Virus record (IMG/VR): IMGVR_UViG_3300033153_012477
Span: 1 to 55,436 of that record
DNA: 55,436 nucleotides
From: a virus
Reading direction: 5' to 3' (one strand)
The position numbers were made by a program, and so were the translations under genes. Positions 199-52,981 of the stretch are shown here, piece by piece; the first letter of the stretch is position 1; each line of letters opens with the position of its first letter. The notes beneath the pieces were generated by a model, which did not search any database, had not been told where the DNA came from, and was given only the letters and a program-made list of their open reading frames with translations.

Positions 199-1392
199 TT
201 AACCTTTTAAAGTAGCAATAGGTCTTAGTTTATACTTAATAGAAACCAAATCTCTTTGTTCTTCCATAACAGTATCAATATTTTTATAAGCACCTGTTGC
301 TTCATCTAAATCTTTTTCAGTTCTAATGCTATGGATGATACCAAGATCTTCCATATGCTTTATTTCTTGGGCTAGGTCTAACTCTCTTTGAGCAGCTTTA
401 CGACCTAGTTTTCTACCCGCTCCATGAGAACAGGACATAAAGGAATCTCTATTACCTAAACCTTCTACAATATAAGAAGGTGTTCCTGGAGATCCAGGGA
501 TAATACCTAACTCTCCTGCAAAAGCTTTAGTAGCTCCTTTTCGATGAACATAAACATTCTTACCATAGTGTCTCTCTAAAGACGCATAGTTGTGATGTAT
601 ATTTATCATGTCATCATTACCAAACTTATCAAAAGAGACAGCTTTATCCTCATACTTAAGCATGCAGTTTTTCACCACTTCCATAGTCTCATACATCATC
701 TTCTGTCTGTTTTTAAAAGCAAAGTCTGTAGCATAAGTCATATCTTCAAAATAAGCTAAACCTTCCATAGTATCCATAGATAAAAAAGCTAACTCTTGCT
801 TATCGTCTACAGAAGAAAAATAAAGCTTATTTATCTCTCTAGCAATCTTGTTGTAATGATCGCATATCGACATACCAAATTTTCTACTCCCTGAATGAAG
901 CATAATCCATAAATTATTTTCTTCATCCCTTTGAAATTCCAAAAAATGATTTCCCGAACCTAAAGTTCCTAACTGATAACGAGCAGGATTTATAAGTGTC
1001 TTCAAAAAATCTGAGTGAGGAAGGTTTGGCATAGCTTCTTCTGCACAAGGATTTTTGTGATTTTTACCTACACCCATAGGAACAACTCTACGAGTAACCC
1101 CCATTATTTTTTTAAGAGTATCTTTAGGTATCTCATCCTTAAAAGATGTCTTCACAGCAGTCATACCACAACCTATATCAACTCCAACAGCATTAGGTAT
1201 AACGTAGTTATCACAAGCTATAACGCCTCCTATAGGCATACCATAACCTTGATGTACGTCGGGCATTAGAGCAACATGACCATGTATAAAAGGTAAAGCT
1301 GCTAAGTTTTTAGCTTGCTCTATAGCTCCTTCTTCTGGGTTATCACACCAACACTTAATTACTTTTTTTCCATCTTCTTTAAAATATTTCAT
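199..1392 (-). CDS. rtcB: RNA-splicing ligase RtcB
   Basis: GTP- and Mn-dependent RNA ligase that joins 2',3'-cyclic phosphate (or 3'-phosphate) ends to 5'-OH ends. The 397 aa match the usual family length. The metal and nucleotide site is intact by motif: C75 in GVDIGCGM, H149 in GSGNHFLE, H166 in HSGSRKFG, H267 in HHNYA, and the guanylylated histidine H323 in SHGAGRKLGR. The start ATG has a clear AAGGAG site. It sits among tRNA genes. In bacteria RtcB is typically an RNA repair enzyme, and in enterobacteria rtcB lies in an operon with Ro60 (rsr) and Y RNAs. A Ro60 gene with Y-like RNAs lies about 28 kb to the right here, so a joint role in repairing tRNA or tRNA-like RNA is plausible but inferred. 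No archease or RtcA was seen. Confidence 0.96.
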   Translation of the reverse strand: MKYFKEDGKKVIKCWCDNPEEGAIEQAKNLAALPFIHGHVALMPDVHQGYGMPIGGVIACDNYVIPNAVGVDIGCGMTAVKTSFKDEIPKDTLKKIMGVTRRVVPMGVGKNHKNPCAEEAMPNLPHSDFLKTLINPARYQLGTLGSGNHFLEFQRDEENNLWIMLHSGSRKFGMSICDHYNKIAREINKLYFSSVDDKQELAFLSMDTMEGLAYFEDMTYATDFAFKNRQKMMYETMEVVKNCMLKYEDKAVSFDKFGNDDMINIHHNYASLERHYGKNVYVHRKGATKAFAGELGIIPGSPGTPSYIVEGLGNRDSFMSCSHGAGRKLGRKAAQRELDLAQEIKHMEDLGIIHSIRTEKDLDEATGAYKNIDTVMEEQRDLVSIKYKLRPIATLKG

Positions 1393-1418
1393 CTCTATCT
1401 CCTTGTCTAAAAAATTGG

Positions 1419-1503
1419 CGGAAGCGGAGAGATTCGAACTCTCGGAGGTGTTACCCTCGGATCCTTAGCAAGGACCTGGTTTAGACCGCTCACCCACGCT
1501 TCC
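1419..1503 (-). tRNA. tRNA-Ser (anticodon GCU)
   Basis: Class II tRNA: acceptor GGAAGCG/CGCTTCC with discriminator G, anticodon stem GGTCC/GGATC, loop TTGCTAA (anticodon GCT), a long paired variable arm and T arm GAGAG/CTCTC. It reads AGC/AGU serine codons. The same anticodon reappears in the permuted tRNA-like element at 29347-29478, which lacks the serine-type long variable arm. Confidence 0.95.
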
Positions 1504-1515
1504 GTAAAAATATGG

Positions 1516-1589
1516 GGAGAAGGACGGGAATTGAACCCGCAACAACCAGACCCACAATCTAGCGTTCTACCAATTGAACTACCTTCTCC
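1516..1589 (-). tRNA. tRNA-His (anticodon GUG)
   Basis: Acceptor GAGAAGG/CCTTCTC with the extra G at position -1 opposite C73, the hallmark of histidine tRNA. The anticodon loop is TTGTGGG (GTG) and the T arm GCGGG/CCCGT. Only 12 nt separate it from tRNA-Ser, so the cluster is probably one polycistronic precursor. Confidence 0.94.
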
Positions 1590-1597
1590 ATAAATGG

Positions 1598-1672
1598 CTC
1601 TGGTGGCTGGATTCGAACCAGCGACCCCCTGATTAACAGTCAGAAGCTCTAAACCAACTGAGCTACACCAGA
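1598..1672 (-). tRNA. tRNA-Asn (anticodon GUU)
   Basis: Acceptor TCTGGTG/CACCAGA, D stem GCTC/GAGC, anticodon stem TCTGA/TCAGG with loop CTGTTAA (anticodon GTT), and T arm GCTGG/CCAGC. Its 5' end overlaps the last codons of the upstream small gene by about 10 nt, so tRNA processing would cut that mRNA. Confidence 0.95.
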
Positions 1673-1923
1673 ACAAAATCTTTTACACTTCTCCTATCAA
1701 TATTTTTGTAACGAGGTTTTTTACCACAGTTACGTTTCCACTTATTAGCCCTTCTAGGACCATAACCACATCTTCCCATGCAGACGATACAATCAACAGA
1801 ACCGTCTCTCTCAAACAGCCTAGCAATTTTGTAGGTTCTGTTATCAGTAGTATTCTTTACTTTACTCTTGCACTTTTTCAAGCCCCATTTATTGGGAGTG
1901 CTTCCTCTGTAGGCTTTGCTCAT
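1663..1923 (-). CDS. Small basic cysteine-containing protein
   Basis: An 86-residue, strongly basic protein starting MSKAYRGSTPNKW. The ATG is preceded by GGAG. A central Cys-rich patch (DCIVCMGRCGYG) could bind metal, and the second half is Arg/Lys-rich, consistent with RNA or DNA binding, but I do not recognise the family. It is embedded between tRNA-Gln and tRNA-Asn and its stop lies inside tRNA-Asn, so it is probably co-transcribed with the tRNAs. The position suggests, without proving, a role in RNA metabolism. Longer readings upstream run into tRNA-Gln and are unlikely. Confidence 0.65.
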   Translation of the reverse strand: MSKAYRGSTPNKWGLKKCKSKVKNTTDNRTYKIARLFERDGSVDCIVCMGRCGYGPRRANKWKRNCGKKPRYKNIDRRSVKDFVLV

Positions 1924-1958
1924 ACTTATCTCCGAAGTTAACACTTCCTTATATTTGG

Positions 1959-2030
1959 CAGGGGTGGAAAGATTCGAACTTTCGGTACACAGAATCAAAA
2001 TCTGCTGCCTTACCACTTGGCTACACCCCT
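1959..2030 (-). tRNA. tRNA-Gln (anticodon UUG)
   Basis: Acceptor AGGGGTG/CACCCCT, D stem GCC-type, anticodon stem GCAGA/TCTGT with loop TTTTGAT (anticodon TTG), T arm GAAAG/CTTTC. One of two adjacent tRNAs with this anticodon. Confidence 0.93.
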
Positions 2031-2042
2031 ATAATTAGTTGG

Positions 2043-2115
2043 CAGGGACACTGGGATTCGAACCCAGATGGACGCTGTCAAAGAGCGTAATCCTAAACCG
2101 TTGGATGATGTCCCA
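2043..2115 (-). tRNA. tRNA-Gln, second copy (anticodon UUG)
   Basis: Acceptor TGGGACA opposite TGTCCCT, six pairs with a U1-U72 mismatch at the end; a weak 1-72 pair is characteristic of glutamine tRNAs. D stem ATCC/GGAT, anticodon stem ACGCT/AGCGT with loop CTTTGAC (anticodon TTG), T arm CTGGG/CCCAG. The body sequence is very different from the first Gln tRNA, so this is not a recent tandem duplicate. Confidence 0.88.
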
Positions 2116-2137
2116 TCAATTTTCATACCCCAAAACG

Positions 2138-2164
2138 CAAAAAGCCCCAAAATTAATTTGGGGC
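2138..2164 (-). terminator. Rho-independent terminator
   Basis: Perfect 8-bp stem GCCCCAAA/TTTGGGGC with a 5-nt loop, followed on the minus strand by TTTTT. It lies downstream of the secreted-protein gene at 2347-3333 and just upstream of the tRNA cluster, insulating the two. Confidence 0.85.
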
Positions 2165-2201
2165 TTCTATATTTGTTTAGTTAAATTTTAAGGTATTAGT
2201 A

Positions 2202-2279
2202 CTAAACAAACCTCCCCGACACAACTGTATTCAGTTGTTGACTTAAATTTAAATGGAGATTGCTCAATACTTTTTTCAT
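2202..2279 (-). CDS. Possible 25-aa peptide
   Basis: A short reading frame MKKVLSNLHLNLSQQ... ending in TAG, with a good AGAGGAAAT ribosome site 8 nt before the ATG. It lies in the spacer between the secreted-protein gene and the terminator, and contains a hairpin (ACAACTG/CAGTTGT, 2221-2238). It may be a real micropeptide, a leader peptide, or chance. Confidence 0.3.
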   Translation of the reverse strand: MKKVLSNLHLNLSQQLNTVVSGRFV

Positions 2280-2346
2280 TAATATTTCCTCTTGATACAT
2301 ACTACCGCTATATTAGCAGATTATCAAGTAAAAAGATTATTTATTT

Positions 2347-3333
2347 TTAAGGAGCAAAAATCTTAGAAGACATACCTGTATCAGAAGCTGTCCAGTTAAG
2401 ATTCCATAAACCAGCTACATCTAAAGAGGTAGCTGAAGCATTCTCATCTATAACTACTTCACTGCAAGTCTGACCAACTTCTCCTACCAGATCTCTAACA
2501 CACCCAATGGTTTGTTTAGCATCCCCATCGGCAGTATTTTGAATAACAGTTGTGGATGTAGCACCAAGAGCTTCAGCCACACCGCTGAAGGTAGCCTTAG
2601 CATCTACTTCCTGAAAAACAACTGAAGTAATGTTAGTTGACCAGTTTCCTTTAGCTACTGTTCTGGTACCTCTGTAATCTCCTACTGTATTATTTTGAAA
2701 AGCAACAATATAGATAAAACTGAAAAAGTTTCCAGGCTCAGTCCTAAAAGAAGTAGAGAACCTCTCAGCATCATTTAAAACACCTGTATTAACCATATAA
2801 AAATCGGCATACATTTGATTAGCATCTTCATTGTCATAGAACATATTGATTGTTCTAGTGCTACCACCTTCTTTAAAAGAGAACCATCCTGCTTTTCTTG
2901 AACAATCAAACTCAACTGTCATTTCTTTAGAACCATCAATAGATATTTCTAATCTTTTTTGATAAGAGGTTCCTTCGTTTGGAAAACTTTGAGGCTTGAT
3001 TTTAAGACTAGTTCCAAGAACCAGACTTATATTAAAAATAGTTCCATCGCCATCATATGTTCCTGATAAAGTTCCAGTTGTGGGAATGGCTGCACAAGTA
3101 GCAACGCTGTTTTGAATGAGTATCTGATCTGAGATATCTAGATAGTCATTCACAAGACCAAGCATACCCCCAAGATGTACTCCTGGTTGTAGAGAATCTC
3201 TAGTAGCAGCATCTGGAAAACCTGCAATAAAAAAGTAAGTTCTTCTAACATGATCTCTCAAATTTTCAGGAGAGATAGCAAACGAATTAAAAGAAAACAA
3301 AATTACAAAAATAGATAGTATAAATTTTTTCAG
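2347..3333 (-). CDS. Secreted protein of unknown function, probable CTG start
   Basis: About 328 aa. The frame continues upstream of the first usable TTG to a CTG codon 5-6 nt after a strong GGAGGA site; starting there gives a textbook signal peptide (KKFILSIFVILFSFNSFA) followed by a Ser/Thr/Asn-rich mature protein. The TTG (3300) is the alternative start and would truncate the signal peptide. The mature part has several cysteines (CAAIP, FDCSRK, IGCVRD, QTCSEV) compatible with periplasmic disulfides. Family not recognised. The upstream gene encodes a small membrane protein 10 nt away; together they look like an envelope-directed pair. Confidence 0.75.
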   Translation of the reverse strand: MKKFILSIFVILFSFNSFAISPENLRDHVRRTYFFIAGFPDAATRDSLQPGVHLGGMLGLVNDYLDISDQILIQNSVATCAAIPTTGTLSGTYDGDGTIFNISLVLGTSLKIKPQSFPNEGTSYQKRLEISIDGSKEMTVEFDCSRKAGWFSFKEGGSTRTINMFYDNEDANQMYADFYMVNTGVLNDAERFSTSFRTEPGNFFSFIYIVAFQNNTVGDYRGTRTVAKGNWSTNITSVVFQEVDAKATFSGVAEALGATSTTVIQNTADGDAKQTIGCVRDLVGEVGQTCSEVVIDENASATSLDVAGLWNLNWTASDTGMSSKIFAP

Positions 3334-3343
3334 GACAGTCCTC

Positions 3344-3502
3344 CTACTTCACACATTTCTGACCATCGCAGGTCATTTCTACTCTTGGAATAAGAGAAGT
3401 GTTTGGGTTAGGTTGAGGAGTAGTTTTACTCCCAAAAGTGTACACAAGCACTATAACAGCCACTACGACTATCACAGCTACAATCGTGGAAAGAGATTTC
3501 AT
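3344..3502 (-). CDS. Small single-span membrane protein (52 aa)
   Basis: Starts MKSLSTIVAVIVVVAVIVLVYTF, a 17-20-residue transmembrane helix, then a Pro/Asn-rich linker and a short tail with two cysteines (CDGQKC). The ATG has GGAGG 5 nt upstream. The stop (TAG) lies 10 nt before the start of the secreted-protein gene, so the two are probably translated from one message. Function unknown; it could be a small inner-membrane accessory or lysis-related peptide, but nothing specific supports that. Confidence 0.7.
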   Translation of the reverse strand: MKSLSTIVAVIVVVAVIVLVYTFGSKTTPQPNPNTSLIPRVEMTCDGQKCVK

Positions 3503-4113: not shown

Positions 4114-4548
4114 CTAAGCTTTACTTGGTATTTCCACTATCTCTTCAGCTTCTTCAACTGTATCAAAGATTTTAATGTCTCTAGGAATACCTTCCCAGAT
4201 ACCGTGCTTTGTGCAGTAAGCGTGAGCTACTAACCTAGCATCCTTTTCTAGTAGGACATTAAATGTCACAGAAGAATTAGCTTTCTTACCTTGACCCCCG
4301 TTTGCTCCTGCAAAATAAGTCATCTCAGCTAACTTCGTCTCTTTGTTATAAAGAGAAATAGTGCTGATGTAGTGATCTAGATCATCTGGGTGAGTATACT
4401 TATCTCCCACTTGAACAGTTACCTTAAAAGGTACTCCCTTAACTGCTTTTCCCTTACAGTTAACAAATGGGGAATGACGATCAATTAGATCTTTCTTGGC
4501 TTCTCTTTCAACTTCATCGATGTTTTCATACTTGTGAATCTTAGGCAT
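4114..4548 (-). CDS. Superoxide reductase (desulfoferrodoxin/neelaredoxin class)
   Basis: Reduces superoxide to hydrogen peroxide at a mononuclear Fe(His4Cys) centre. In the 144 aa all five ligands can be placed: H25 in RHSPF, H53 and H59 in THPDDLDHYI, C112 and H115 in the signature CTKHGIWEG. There is no N-terminal rubredoxin-like Cys4 site, so it is the one-iron class. The lysine near the active site seen in classical enzymes is not obvious here (RHSP instead of EKHVP). A good ribosome site precedes the ATG. The gene ends in TAG. It lies between a membrane protein and a candidate ncRNA. A phage-borne superoxide reductase is unusual and would fit protection of an infected micro-aerobic or oxidatively stressed host. 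Confidence 0.88.
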   Translation of the reverse strand: MPKIHKYENIDEVEREAKKDLIDRHSPFVNCKGKAVKGVPFKVTVQVGDKYTHPDDLDHYISTISLYNKETKLAEMTYFAGANGGQGKKANSSVTFNVLLEKDARLVAHAYCTKHGIWEGIPRDIKIFDTVEEAEEIVEIPSKA

Positions 4549-5112: not shown

Positions 5113-5580
5113 TGGTGGAGCTGGGGGTAATCGAAACCCCGTCCGAAAGCTCTTCTTAGTCCTGATCTACGTGTGTAGTCTATTTCAACCTATAGACAGG
5201 CTGTGAGTTTTGGTTGTAGGTACACTGCCCGTATCACAACTTTATTTTGAGTCGCAGCTACCATTCGACTTGGGGGTGCTGTGACCTAAACCATAGCACC
5301 CTCCACCACTTACTTTTGAGAAAAGCAAGAAAACATGGGGAAAGTGTTATAACGCCCCTCCCACGTCTGCGGTCCTTCTCCTGTTTCTTGGCTAGGACAG
5401 CCTCATGGACTCAAAGCTATTAAGCTGCTAACCTTAGGCTAGGTGCTCTTTTCGCTCTGAATGCGTCCAAAGAAACTACATTTTCGTCAGTTACTTTTGT
5501 TTGAGTCTTTTAAAGAGTCCCGACTCACCTCTACACGCACAAAACTCGTCTGCTGCCCCCGTCGAAACCAGTGCAGCCCC
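5113..5580 (-). ncRNA. ssrA: Transfer-messenger RNA (tmRNA)
   Basis: The two ends form the alanine-tRNA-like domain: 5' GGGGCTG pairs with 3' CAGCTCC, followed by encoded ACCA. The 5' end continues with TGGTTTCGACGGGG and the T arm reads GGGGTTTCGATTACCCC, both typical of tmRNA. The tag frame (5494 down to 5420) encodes about 24 residues beginning VTDENVV and ending RLAA, followed by tandem stops TAA TAG. The remainder folds into pseudoknot-like hairpins, for example GGGTGCT.../...AGCACCC around 5270-5305. At 468 nt it is longer than most bacterial tmRNAs. It rescues stalled ribosomes and tags nascent proteins for proteolysis. tmRNA genes are rare in phages. Confidence 0.93.
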
Positions 5581-5585
5581 ACAAA

Positions 5586-5615
5586 ATTTTATAAATACAT
5601 CGTAGTCTATATAAG
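5586..5615 (-). promoter_or_regulatory. tmRNA promoter
   Basis: On the minus strand CTTATATAGAC (5605-5615) is followed after 11 nt by TATAAA (5588-5593), 7 nt before the mature tmRNA 5' end. A TTGACT lies just upstream of the first element. The spacing suggests the recurring CTATATA word replaces or supplements a -35 box here. Confidence 0.55.
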
Positions 5616-5734
5616 TCTAAAAAGTCAAAATATTTTTTTAAAAACTGGACCATAGGACTGACGTACTTATCATACGCTTACAAGCACCTGTCTAGCAGTG
5701 ACCCTACGTCTTACCCAGTAAAAAACAACCTATA

Positions 5735-19723: not shown

Positions 19724-20632
19724 TTATATATTTAAAATACGCTGTTTCCGAACATCAATCTCACTGGTACACTCGTCTGATTTACAGATTAAACCCCGAC
19801 CCAACACTTCTCGCAAAGCTCTTCCATAAGAATCGTGTACGCTAAAGAATTTTCCTAAACCTTTCTTCTTGTAGTCTAAGCAGGGGTAAACATCTCCTTG
19901 AGATGATATATAAAAACAACTTTTACCGCAGTCACATCTGTAATACTTAAAGTTATTTATATTATTTGCCCATAAAAAACCTGGAGTAGTATCTTTCTCT
20001 TGAATGATACCTTCCTTCTCATACTTCAAATATATTTTTCTTGTTTTGTTTTTGTTCTGATTTAAAAACCACTTCACTTCTTCAGTTGTGAATCCTTGAT
20101 CCTTGTAATCTATTTTAAAAGGAGTGACATCTGAGCACACACTGCATATCTCTTCGTATACCTCTTGCAACATATTATAGGGAGTGTCATACATAAAAGC
20201 CACAGACACCTTAACGTTTTTAGACACCAGATATTCAATAGTCTCCAAATATTTTTTAAGATCTGTCTGACTTGGATGATAAGATGTTTCGAATTTTAGG
20301 TCAGGTCTTATCTCTAAAACTTTTTCAAAATAGCTCAACCCTTTACTCAAGTTAGTGAAAACTCCCAAGTCAATTTTAGGATCCAACTCTTCTAGTATTC
20401 TTAAAAAATCGGGATGAAGAGTAGGCTCCCCACCAAAGAGCGTTAGTATAATGTTTTTATTTTTACTAAGATCATTAATGAGCTTAAGGGTTTCCAGAGG
20501 ATAGTGGTAAGGCTCCTTGTAATGTAAAGTACAATACCTGCAATCATAGGTACAATTCCCAGTCACTTCCCAAGTAATCCCAAAGTCATTTGATTTAAGT
20601 GCTGGGCATTTATTTACTTCTAACACTTTCAT
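19724..20632 (-). CDS. Radical SAM protein with SPASM-like C-terminus
   Basis: 302 aa. The 4Fe-4S/SAM motif CTYDCRYC (about 28-35) is intact and LTLFGGEPTLHPDF provides the GGEP motif. A C-terminal cysteine set (YRCDCGKSCFYI, VYPCLDYKKKG, ICKSDECTSE) suggests one or two auxiliary clusters as in SPASM/twitch enzymes. Clear paralogue of 27602-28513 (same layout and same end CxxxxCxSExxxxKxRxL). The substrate is unknown; such enzymes often modify peptides or RNA. It is translationally coupled to the degenerate homologue at 20629-21510. Confidence 0.88.
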   Translation of the reverse strand: MKVLEVNKCPALKSNDFGITWEVTGNCTYDCRYCTLHYKEPYHYPLETLKLINDLSKNKNIILTLFGGEPTLHPDFLRILEELDPKIDLGVFTNLSKGLSYFEKVLEIRPDLKFETSYHPSQTDLKKYLETIEYLVSKNVKVSVAFMYDTPYNMLQEVYEEICSVCSDVTPFKIDYKDQGFTTEEVKWFLNQNKNKTRKIYLKYEKEGIIQEKDTTPGFLWANNINNFKYYRCDCGKSCFYISSQGDVYPCLDYKKKGLGKFFSVHDSYGRALREVLGRGLICKSDECTSEIDVRKQRILNI

Positions 20633-27601: not shown

Positions 27602-28513
27602 CTACTTTAGCACTCTCTTTTTAGGAACTCCTAGCTCACTAGAACAACTGTTCATTTTGCAAACTACTCCCTTAGTGCTTAATTCTTCAAATTCCTTCTT
27701 GAAGTCTCCCGTGTTTAGATCAAAGTATGGATCTGAATCCCGTCTTCGATAATCCAAGCAAGGATAGACTAAACCATCATATGCTACAAATATGTTGTGT
27801 ATTCCACAATCACACTTAAAGTATTTAAACTGATTCAAACTATTAGCGAATAAATAATTTGAGATAGTTTCTTTACTTCTTATCTCACCGTCCTCTTCAA
27901 AGGTTATTGTGAGATCTTCACCTTTTTGCTCACGCATGTACCAAGCTTCATCGTACTCAGACAAAGACTTTTGGTCAGTGTGTTCTACCTTAGCTATTAT
28001 TGAGGTAACACTTTCTGAACAGAGTTCTTTTATCTTTAGGTAGTCTTTTTTATATGTTGGAAAATTTGTGTCCAGCATATAAACTACCTCAAGCTTAGGT
28101 ACTTTATTAGATAAGTATTTCACCTTGTTGTAGAACGTGTCAAATTTTTCTCTACTAGGATGGAAGGATGTCTCTAACTCAATATCAGGTTTCACCTTTA
28201 TAACTTTATCATAAAAATCTAAACTCTTGCTGAGATTAGTATACATCTCTACTTTAACTTTAAGATTTTTAAGAACAGTTAATATCTCTGGGTGAAGAGA
28301 AGGCTCTCCTCCAAAAAGAGTAAGCTTCACATTTCTCAGAGTACCTACATAATTAATGAACTCCACTACCTTGTCCTGATTGGTAGACACCTCTAAACCA
28401 TAGAGGTCACAGTACTTGCAGGAGTAATTACAAAGGGTATTGATCTCCCAAGTAATGGCGTACCTATTAATTGGGGGCATGTGGTTGTGATCTTTTACTT
28501 CCAATATCTTCAT
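27602..28513 (-). CDS. Radical SAM protein with SPASM-like C-terminus (paralogue)
   Basis: 303 aa. CNYSCKYC (about 28-35) binds the 4Fe-4S cluster and LTLFGGEPSLHPE is the GGEP region. C-terminal cysteines KCDCGIHN, VYPCLDYRRRD and VCKMNSCSSE are the likely auxiliary-cluster ligands. Paralogous to 19724-20632 throughout. No strong ribosome site; the start is 38 nt after the CCA-ending tRNA-like RNA at 28549, so its message may arise by processing of the tRNA-like precursor. Substrate unknown. Confidence 0.87.
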   Translation of the reverse strand: MKILEVKDHNHMPPINRYAITWEINTLCNYSCKYCDLYGLEVSTNQDKVVEFINYVGTLRNVKLTLFGGEPSLHPEILTVLKNLKVKVEMYTNLSKSLDFYDKVIKVKPDIELETSFHPSREKFDTFYNKVKYLSNKVPKLEVVYMLDTNFPTYKKDYLKIKELCSESVTSIIAKVEHTDQKSLSEYDEAWYMREQKGEDLTITFEEDGEIRSKETISNYLFANSLNQFKYFKCDCGIHNIFVAYDGLVYPCLDYRRRDSDPYFDLNTGDFKKEFEELSTKGVVCKMNSCSSELGVPKKRVLK

Positions 28514-28548: not shown

Positions 28549-28649
28549 TGGAGCGTGAGATAGGATTTGAACCTATAACCTTCCTAGATCTTCTTTCGCT
28601 TTAACACGAGATTCTTCCTAGACTGCTGACCAGACTCAGCTTCACACGC
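28549..28649 (-). tRNA. tRNA-like RNA with 30-nt anticodon loop, CCA encoded
   Basis: The body is a good tRNA: acceptor GCGTGTG/CTCACGC (one mismatch), discriminator T, encoded CCA, D stem GCTG/CAGC, variable region AGGTT, T arm ATAGG/CCTAT. The anticodon stem GTCTA(G)/(C)TAGGA closes a loop of about 30 nt instead of 7, so no anticodon can be assigned. The loop can fold into a short hairpin with the hexaloop GTTAAA, the same loop that caps the Y-type stem of the neighbour at 28655-28793. Only 5 nt separate the two, so they form a tandem. It may be an intron-containing tRNA, a tRNA mimic, or a degenerate relative of the neighbour. Confidence 0.6.
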
Positions 28650-28654
28650 ATATA

Positions 28655-28793
28655 TGGTGGAGAGGGCAAGGATTTGAACCTGCGACACCCTGGTTTACCA
28701 CGAAGTATGTCTAATCTACGCCACGCTTTTAACAGCGGGTTCAAACGATAAGACTCTTTTCTCCAGGTGCTCTACCAACTGAGCTACCTCTCC
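28655..28793 (-). ncRNA. tRNA with a Y-RNA-type stem in its anticodon loop, CCA encoded
   Basis: In normal order: acceptor GGAGAGG/CCTCTCC (7 perfect pairs), discriminator A, encoded CCA, D stem GCTC/GAGC, perfect anticodon stem CCTGG/CCAGG, T arm GCAGG/CTTGC. In place of a 7-nt loop there are about 68 nt containing helix GTCTTATC/GATTAGAC, the conserved internal loop (GTTTGAACC opposite TGGCGTA), and the end hairpin CGCT-GTTAAA-AGCG. The internal loop is identical to those of the three other elements around the Ro60 gene. On the 3' side, TGGTAA preceding ACCAGG looks like a threonine GGU anticodon context, but removal of the insert leaves an 8-nt loop. Either a spliced tRNA precursor or a Ro60-binding tRNA mimic. 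Confidence 0.75.
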
Positions 28794-28794
28794 A

Positions 28795-29112
28795 TTAAAT
28801 ATCTTCTATAGTACTTATCAAATCTTCTAAAGATTGTCCACCAACCTTAGTGTTTTCTATTTTACCATCCTTAAAGAAAAGTAAAGTAGGGATTCCTCTG
28901 ATGCCATATTTAGCAGCAGAAGTAGGATTATTATCTACGTCAATTTTCCTAACACTGATCTCAGGTTTTTTCTCAGCAAGTTCCTCAAGAACAGGAGCCA
29001 TCACCTTACAAGGTCCACACCAGTCAGCATAGAAATCTACAACGATAATTCCTTCTTTCTTTAAAACTTCTGATTCAAATTCCTTATCTGAGACGGGTAA
29101 AGCTGACGACAT
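28795..29112 (-). CDS. trxA: Thioredoxin
   Basis: 105 aa from the ATG at 29112 (AAGGGAG upstream; an in-frame GTG lies two codons earlier). Active site ADWCGPCKVMAP with C32 and C35, and the cis-proline in IRGIPTLLFF; the rest matches a canonical thioredoxin fold. It could reduce phage or host enzymes or act as a polymerase processivity factor as host thioredoxin does for T7, but only the redox role is supported here. It is inserted between the tRNA-like RNA elements: a terminator lies 30 nt upstream and the tRNA/Y chimera starts 2 nt downstream of the stop. Confidence 0.95.
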   Translation of the reverse strand: MSSALPVSDKEFESEVLKKEGIIVVDFYADWCGPCKVMAPVLEELAEKKPEISVRKIDVDNNPTSAAKYGIRGIPTLLFFKDGKIENTKVGGQSLEDLISTIEDI

Positions 29113-29134
29113 AAACACTCCCTTGTCATGTGTT

Positions 29135-29175
29135 AAAATATAAGGCTTCTCCTAAAATTGCTTCCAAGAGAAGCC
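29135..29175 (-). terminator. Rho-independent terminator of the Y-like RNA pair
   Basis: Perfect 8-bp stem GGCTTCTC/GAGAAGCC (29144-29175) with a 16-nt loop, followed on the minus strand by TTATATTTT. It starts within 10 nt of the end of the permuted element at 29182-29313, defining the 3' end of its primary transcript. Confidence 0.8.
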
Positions 29176-29181
29176 CTAAAA

Positions 29182-51364: not shown

Positions 51365-52981
<1,617 letters not shown>

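What the first reader, a model, noticed from the sequence alone, without database searches (positions are those of the whole stretch)
5113..5580. Phage-borne tmRNA with an unusually long tag
The ends, tag frame and tandem stops are clear. The tag frame encodes about 24 residues (start VTDEN, end RLAA), longer than typical tags of around ten, and does not end in the common ALAA. The resume codon (GTA or ACT) is also atypical versus GCA. It might direct tagged proteins to a different fate or be adapted to a particular host.
Basis: partly seen in the sequence, partly recalled or inferred. Interest (0 to 1): 0.7.

Follow-up and report, generated by a model that had tools for sequence, protein, structure and literature searches.

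The report
Phage ribosome-rescue RNA, long tag
A large bacterial virus carries its own complete copy of the RNA that bacteria use to free stuck ribosomes, with a destruction tag about twice the usual length that starts at an unusual codon; viral copies of this RNA are already known, so it is a modestly unusual member of a known kind.

Summary
The tmRNA is real. Rfam RF00023 matches full length (1-374, 127.5 bits) at exactly 5580-5113, minus strand. It is a one-piece tmRNA with an alanine-type acceptor stem (G3.U), encoded CCA, a PK1-like element and a tag ending in tandem TAA TAG. The source is a 192,712-base virus record with phage tail, helicase and recombinase genes, not a bacterial chromosome.

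The covariance alignment, and four surveyed viral tmRNAs with the same UAACU directly before a GCN resume codon, place it at GAC. The tag is 22 residues, DENVVSLDAFRAKRAPSLRLAA. RLAA ends are ordinary (12 of 66 unique viral tags). The tag is slightly longer than any of 21 unique one-piece viral tags (9-21 aa), but two-piece viral tags reach 31.

Most likely it works as a normal tmRNA using host SmpB, with the LAA end sending tagged proteins to host ClpXP; function is inferred. The record lacks SmpB, ClpP, Clp-ATPase and SspB matches but encodes a complete LonA protease. A private tag-Lon pair, as in Mesoplasma, is therefore possible but unproven.

The parts
5113..5580 (-). one-piece tmRNA gene (ssrA), 468 nt, 5' end at 5580
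   Evidence: RF00023 full length, 127.5 bits; fold more stable than shuffles, z -2.23
5574..5580 (-). 5' strand of the acceptor stem, GGGGCUG; pairs with CAGCUCC, third pair G.U (alanine identity element)
   Evidence: sequence; model alignment
5503..5532 (-). PK1-like element: GAGUC/GACUC stem with AGAG/CUCU loop pairing
   Evidence: read from the sequence; stem in Rfam alignment
5489..5493 (-). UAACU, the element just upstream of the resume codon (U at -5, A at -4)
   Evidence: Rfam alignment; the same UAACU precedes GCN resume codons in L020, L040, L089, L092
5486..5488 (-). resume codon GAC (Asp)
   Evidence: position-weight ranking divided between GAC and GTA, ACT excluded
5423..5488 (-). 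tag reading frame, 22 codons: DENVVSLDAFRAKRAPSLRLAA
5417..5422 (-). tandem stop codons TAA TAG
5113..5151 (-). 3' tRNA-like part: T arm, acceptor 3' strand, encoded CCA
5599..5628 (-). promoter-like TTGACT-N18-TACGAT 18 bases before the mature 5' end (weak; 4 such sites in the region against 2.8 expected)
54923..54998 (+). tRNA with anticodon CUA (amber-suppressor type), possibly linked in function

Best explanation
It is a functional phage-encoded one-piece tmRNA. Host AlaRS charges it (G3.U pair, CCA) and host SmpB and EF-Tu bring it to ribosomes stalled on broken or non-stop mRNA in the infected cell. Translation resumes at GAC, adds Ala plus DENVVSLDAFRAKRAPSLRLAA, and stops at UAA UAG. 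The C-terminal LAA sends the tagged chain to host ClpXP, and the extra residues between resume codon and LAA act as a spacer. Shown: gene, ends, domain structure, tag frame, absence of matches to SmpB, Clp ATPase and ClpP in the record. Inferred: expression, charging, use of GAC, and degradation route.
For: RF00023 full length. Intact acceptor stem with G.U at position 3 and encoded CCA. Tag frame not expected by chance (0 of 3000 shuffles). Resume region aligned to GAC with high posterior, and UAACU directly before GCN in four other viral tmRNAs. Phage setting: tail fibre, baseplate, helicase, UvsX/RecA-like and DNA ligase genes, with nine tRNA genes in the first 12.3 kb. No SmpB, ClpP, SspB or Clp-ATPase C-domain in the record, so a working tmRNA must borrow host factors. 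Phage tmRNAs are established: 402 of 18,146 phage genomes (PMC9004378).
Against: No expression data and no relative with the same tag, so conservation of the tag cannot be tested: tag-pattern searches gave none and close-relative scans failed. A weight matrix from two-piece tmRNAs ranks GTA above GAC. A complete Lon in the record offers another degradation route.
Confidence: 0.68

Rival explanations
1. Private degradation pair: the long tag is read by the phage's own LonA protease rather than by host ClpXP, as the long Mesoplasma florum tag is read by its Lon.
For: The same record encodes a complete LonA (N-domain, AAA, lid, S16 domain; Walker A, PKDGPSAG serine, GGIKEK lysine) at record 100653-102956. 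No Clp ATPase C-domain or ClpP. Of 48 viral records bearing the tmRNA 5' pattern none has Lon_C, and of 26 viral records with Lon-like hits none has a tmRNA over the cut-off, so the pairing is unusual. Precedent: Lon degrades ssrA-tagged proteins in M. florum (Gur and Sauer 2008, as described in PMC8138137).
Against: The tag keeps the LAA end that ClpX reads; the two genes lie about 95 kb apart; no relative shows co-inheritance; many surveyed records are fragments; Lon also takes ordinary tags (Choy 2007, cited in PMC8012679), so Lon needs no special tag.
Confidence: 0.12
2. Readthrough insurance: the phage's CUA-anticodon tRNA causes readthrough of amber stops into mRNA ends, and the phage tmRNA clears the resulting non-stop ribosomes.
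For: CUA-anticodon tRNA at 54923-54998. A role of SsrA in coping with readthrough caused by suppressor tRNAs is the title finding of Ueda et al. 2002, cited in PMC8012679.
Against: 51 of 220 predicted ORFs of the record end in TAG, so strong suppression would also harm the phage; the amino acid carried by this tRNA is unknown. Not exclusive of the main explanation.
Confidence: 0.1
3. Resume at GTA (24-residue tag VTDENVV...).
For: A weight matrix from two-piece viral tmRNAs, and one from all surveyed tags, rank GTA first.
Against: The covariance alignment puts GAC on the resume codon. In L020 the identical string AAAAGTAACTG runs into GCA-AAC-GAA, giving the canonical tag ANESSYALAA. U at -5 is lost with GTA.
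Confidence: 0.15
4. A decaying or decoy tmRNA that titrates host SmpB and is not translated as a tag.
For: A TLD-only tmRNA is known in mycobacteriophage DS6A (PMC4131195); several internal helices score poorly in the model alignment.
Against: Intact TLD, resume element and tag with tandem stops; 0 of 3000 shuffles keep such a frame.
Confidence: 0.06

Closest known systems
Bacterial one-piece tmRNA (ssrA; Rfam RF00023)
   Same: TLD, PK1-like element, resume element, tag with LAA end, tandem stops, CCA
   Different: resume codon GAC instead of GCN; tag 22 instead of about 10 residues; 468 nt against 374 model positions; tag starts DEN where typical tags start ANDEN, as if GCA AAC were lost (compare L020)
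Phage-encoded tmRNAs (Bacillus phage G, mycobacteriophages, two-piece tmRNA of phage Melnitz)
   Same: complete tmRNA in a phage genome, often with tRNA genes
   Different: phage G tag read here is 13 residues (AKLNITNNELQVA); Melnitz has a two-piece, riboswitch-controlled gene (PMC9004378); this one is one-piece with a longer tag
Mesoplasma/Mycoplasma tmRNA with Lon-specific long tag
   Same: long tag, a Lon encoded in the same genome, no ClpXP in that genome
   Different: Mesoplasma lacks ClpXP altogether, whereas a phage host will usually have it; this tag ends in LAA; recognition by the phage Lon is untested
SspB adaptor of Pseudomonas phage pf16
   Same: phage gene feeding into the ssrA degradation route
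   Different: pf16 has the adaptor without a tmRNA (PMC5587285); here a tmRNA without SspB

Membership tests
tmRNA (RF00023) | full-length match to the family covariance model above its cut-off | tested here: met
   127.5 bits against 47, model 1-374
tmRNA (RF00023) | alanine-accepting TLD: G3.U pair, T arm, CCA end, no anticodon arm | tested here: met
   sequence and alignment; charging itself not tested
tmRNA (RF00023) | tag reading frame with hydrophobic end and in-frame stop | tested here: met
   ...RLAA TAA TAG; 0 of 3000 shuffles
tmRNA (RF00023) | resume codon placed by conserved upstream bases | tested here: met
   UAACU before GAC; matrix ranking divided between GAC and GTA
tmRNA (RF00023) | pseudoknots PK1-PK4 | tested here: inconclusive
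   PK1-like pairing present; the downstream helices align partly and no relatives were found for covariation
tmRNA (RF00023) | tags proteins on stalled ribosomes with SmpB | not testable with these tools
   no SmpB in the record; host unknown
phage-encoded tmRNA | lies in a virus genome, not a bacterial chromosome | tested here: met
   192,712-base virus record with tail, baseplate, helicase and recombinase genes; no terminase family hit with phrog_2
Lon-specific long-tag system (Mesoplasma type) | Lon in the same genome that reads the tag | not testable with these tools
   complete LonA present; recognition needs an assay

The most novel reading that the evidence does not exclude
The phage carries a self-contained tag-and-destroy pair: a tmRNA with a long tag and a LonA protease matched to it, so that proteins from stalled ribosomes go to a phage protease instead of host ClpXP.
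Probability: 0.1. Interest if true: 0.75.

Novelty: new member of a known kind. Interest (0 to 1): 0.33.

Why it matters
It adds a one-piece phage tmRNA with an aspartate resume codon and the longest one-piece tag in this survey, and it shows that default gene finders miss such genes or misread their tags. The presence of a complete Lon in the same record makes a concrete, cheap test possible: do phages pair their own tag with their own protease?

Tried and rejected
ARAGORN tag calls for this gene at loosened settings (EGPQTW..., ATQNKV...) are artefacts lying downstream of the true tag. Search for the same tag in viral contigs: stricter pattern none; looser pattern 25 hits, all inside open frames without tmRNA context. 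tblastn of the tag against phages: none. Close relatives through RtcB and Lon peptides in viral contigs: none. Relatives through GroEL: 25 large records, two with a tmRNA, none with Lon_C. Alternative genetic code: coverage is not clearly better than under code 11, so rejected. Prophage or bacterial-chromosome origin: rejected for lack of flanking bacterial genes and presence of phage structural genes.

Full report
What is there. The window is the first 55,436 bases of a 192,712-base IMG/VR virus record, 35.7% G+C, standard code with 94% ORF coverage. Phage hallmarks are spread over the record: tail fibre and other tail proteins, a baseplate wedge subunit, a DNA helicase and a UvsX/RecA-like recombinase, and NAD-dependent DNA ligase. 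No terminase family hit was obtained with phrog_2, and best matches to known phages are distant, so this is a poorly represented lineage.

The tmRNA. RF00023 matches the minus strand from 5580 to 5113 over the whole model (1-374) with 127.5 bits, the same ends as the finding. The gene starts GGGGCUG and ends CAGCUCC-A-CCA; the third pair is G.U. A PK1-like element (AGAG GU GAGUC GGGA CUCU UUAAAA GACUC) lies before the tag. ARAGORN misses the gene by default and misreads its tag when loosened. The minimum free energy is 2.2 standard deviations below shuffles.

The resume codon. The covariance alignment sets model AAAAAAUAAuUGCaAACg against CAAAAGUAACUGACGAAA, so the model's GCa falls on GAC. 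In the survey, four viral tmRNAs have UAACU directly before a GCN resume codon and a canonical tag: L020 AAAAGTAACTGCAAACGAA (ANESSYALAA), L040 and L092 AAATAACTGC (ANDNVALTLAA), L089 TTTTAACTGCC (ANDNVEVDYALAA). ARAGORN reads L020 as VTANESSYALAA, the same misreading as the finding's VTDEN. Weight matrices over all surveyed tags and over two-piece tags score GTA above GAC, one from one-piece tmRNAs scores GAC above GTA, and all exclude ACT; the weight of evidence is for GAC. Comparison with L020 suggests that the usual GCA AAC (Ala-Asn) has been lost, leaving DEN; this is inference. The bases just upstream of the resume codon contact SmpB and set its position (PMC8012679).

The tag. DENVVSLDAFRAKRAPSLRLAA, 22 residues, then TAA TAG. 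Shuffling the internal region 3000 times never produced such a frame with tandem stops. RLAA ends 5 of 21 and 7 of 45 of them. So the length is at the edge for one-piece tags, the RLAA end is common, and the non-alanine resume codon is the most unusual point. The survey leans towards what ARAGORN can find; the present gene shows that it misses long-tag cases.

Setting and mechanism. The tmRNA lies among tRNA genes on the same strand. A weak promoter-like site lies 18 bases upstream of the mature 5' end, at a density no better than chance. The record has no match to SmpB, ClpP, SspB or the Clp-ATPase C-domain, so trans-translation would rely on host SmpB and, by the LAA end, host ClpXP. The record does encode a complete LonA protease (100653-102956, minus): all four Lon domains, Walker A, the serine in PKDGPSAG and the lysine in GGIKEK, about 40% identical to other Lon proteins. 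Lon_C was absent from 48 other viral records bearing the tmRNA 5' pattern; no tmRNA over the cut-off was found in 26 viral records with Lon-like hits; 25 GroEL-bearing viral records had no Lon_C and two tmRNAs. Many of these records are fragments. In Mesoplasma florum, which lacks ClpXP, Lon degrades proteins bearing an ssrA tag of unusual length and sequence (PMC8138137). The co-occurrence is therefore suggestive but not more. A further possible link is the CUA-anticodon tRNA, because SsrA is reported to help cells cope with suppressor-tRNA readthrough (Ueda et al. 2002, cited in PMC8012679).

Known context. Phage tmRNAs are established: 402 of 18,146 phage genomes, 133 unique structures (PMC9004378); eight mycobacteriophages and phage G in an earlier survey (PMC4131195). 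Phage G's tag, read here, is 13 residues. The present gene is a new member of this kind, with a longer tag and an aspartate resume codon. Whether the long tag changes the fate of tagged proteins cannot be decided by sequence.

Noticed in passing
record 100653-102956 minus (L129:5653-7956), outside the window: Complete LonA protease in a large phage record, about 40% identical to other Lon proteins; rare among viral records checked.
   Followed up: partly
window 28552-31076 minus: Ro60/TROVE protein split over two overlapping ORFs (29498-30397 and 30351-31076), next to two sub-threshold YrlA (Y RNA-like) hits (29213-29272, 29375-29440) and two tRNA-like hits (28658-28793 with about 61 extra bases in the anticodon loop; 28552-28649). 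With RtcB at 199-1392 this looks like a phage RNA-repair / Ro60-Y RNA locus.
   Followed up: partly
window 54923-54998 plus: tRNA with anticodon CUA (amber-suppressor type, called Pyl by ARAGORN) although 51 of 220 predicted ORFs end in TAG.
   Followed up: partly
record 62149-76530 (L127, L128) and window 19724-20632, 27602-28513: Many radical-SAM proteins in one phage record.
   Followed up: no
window 4114-4548 minus: Desulfoferrodoxin domain protein close to the tmRNA, suggesting an anaerobic or redox-stressed host.
   Followed up: no
window 51368-52981 plus: Full-length GroEL, about 60% identical to bacterial GroEL.
   Followed up: partly
L163 (192,537-base viral contig) 751-3392: Lon-like protein lacking the protease domain (no Lon_C in that record) and interrupted by another reading frame, perhaps a homing endonuclease insertion.
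   Followed up: no
ARAGORN output for L020 and L030: ARAGORN extends tags upstream of the likely resume codon (VTAN..., VKAN...), a misreading where the upstream frame is open.
   Followed up: yes
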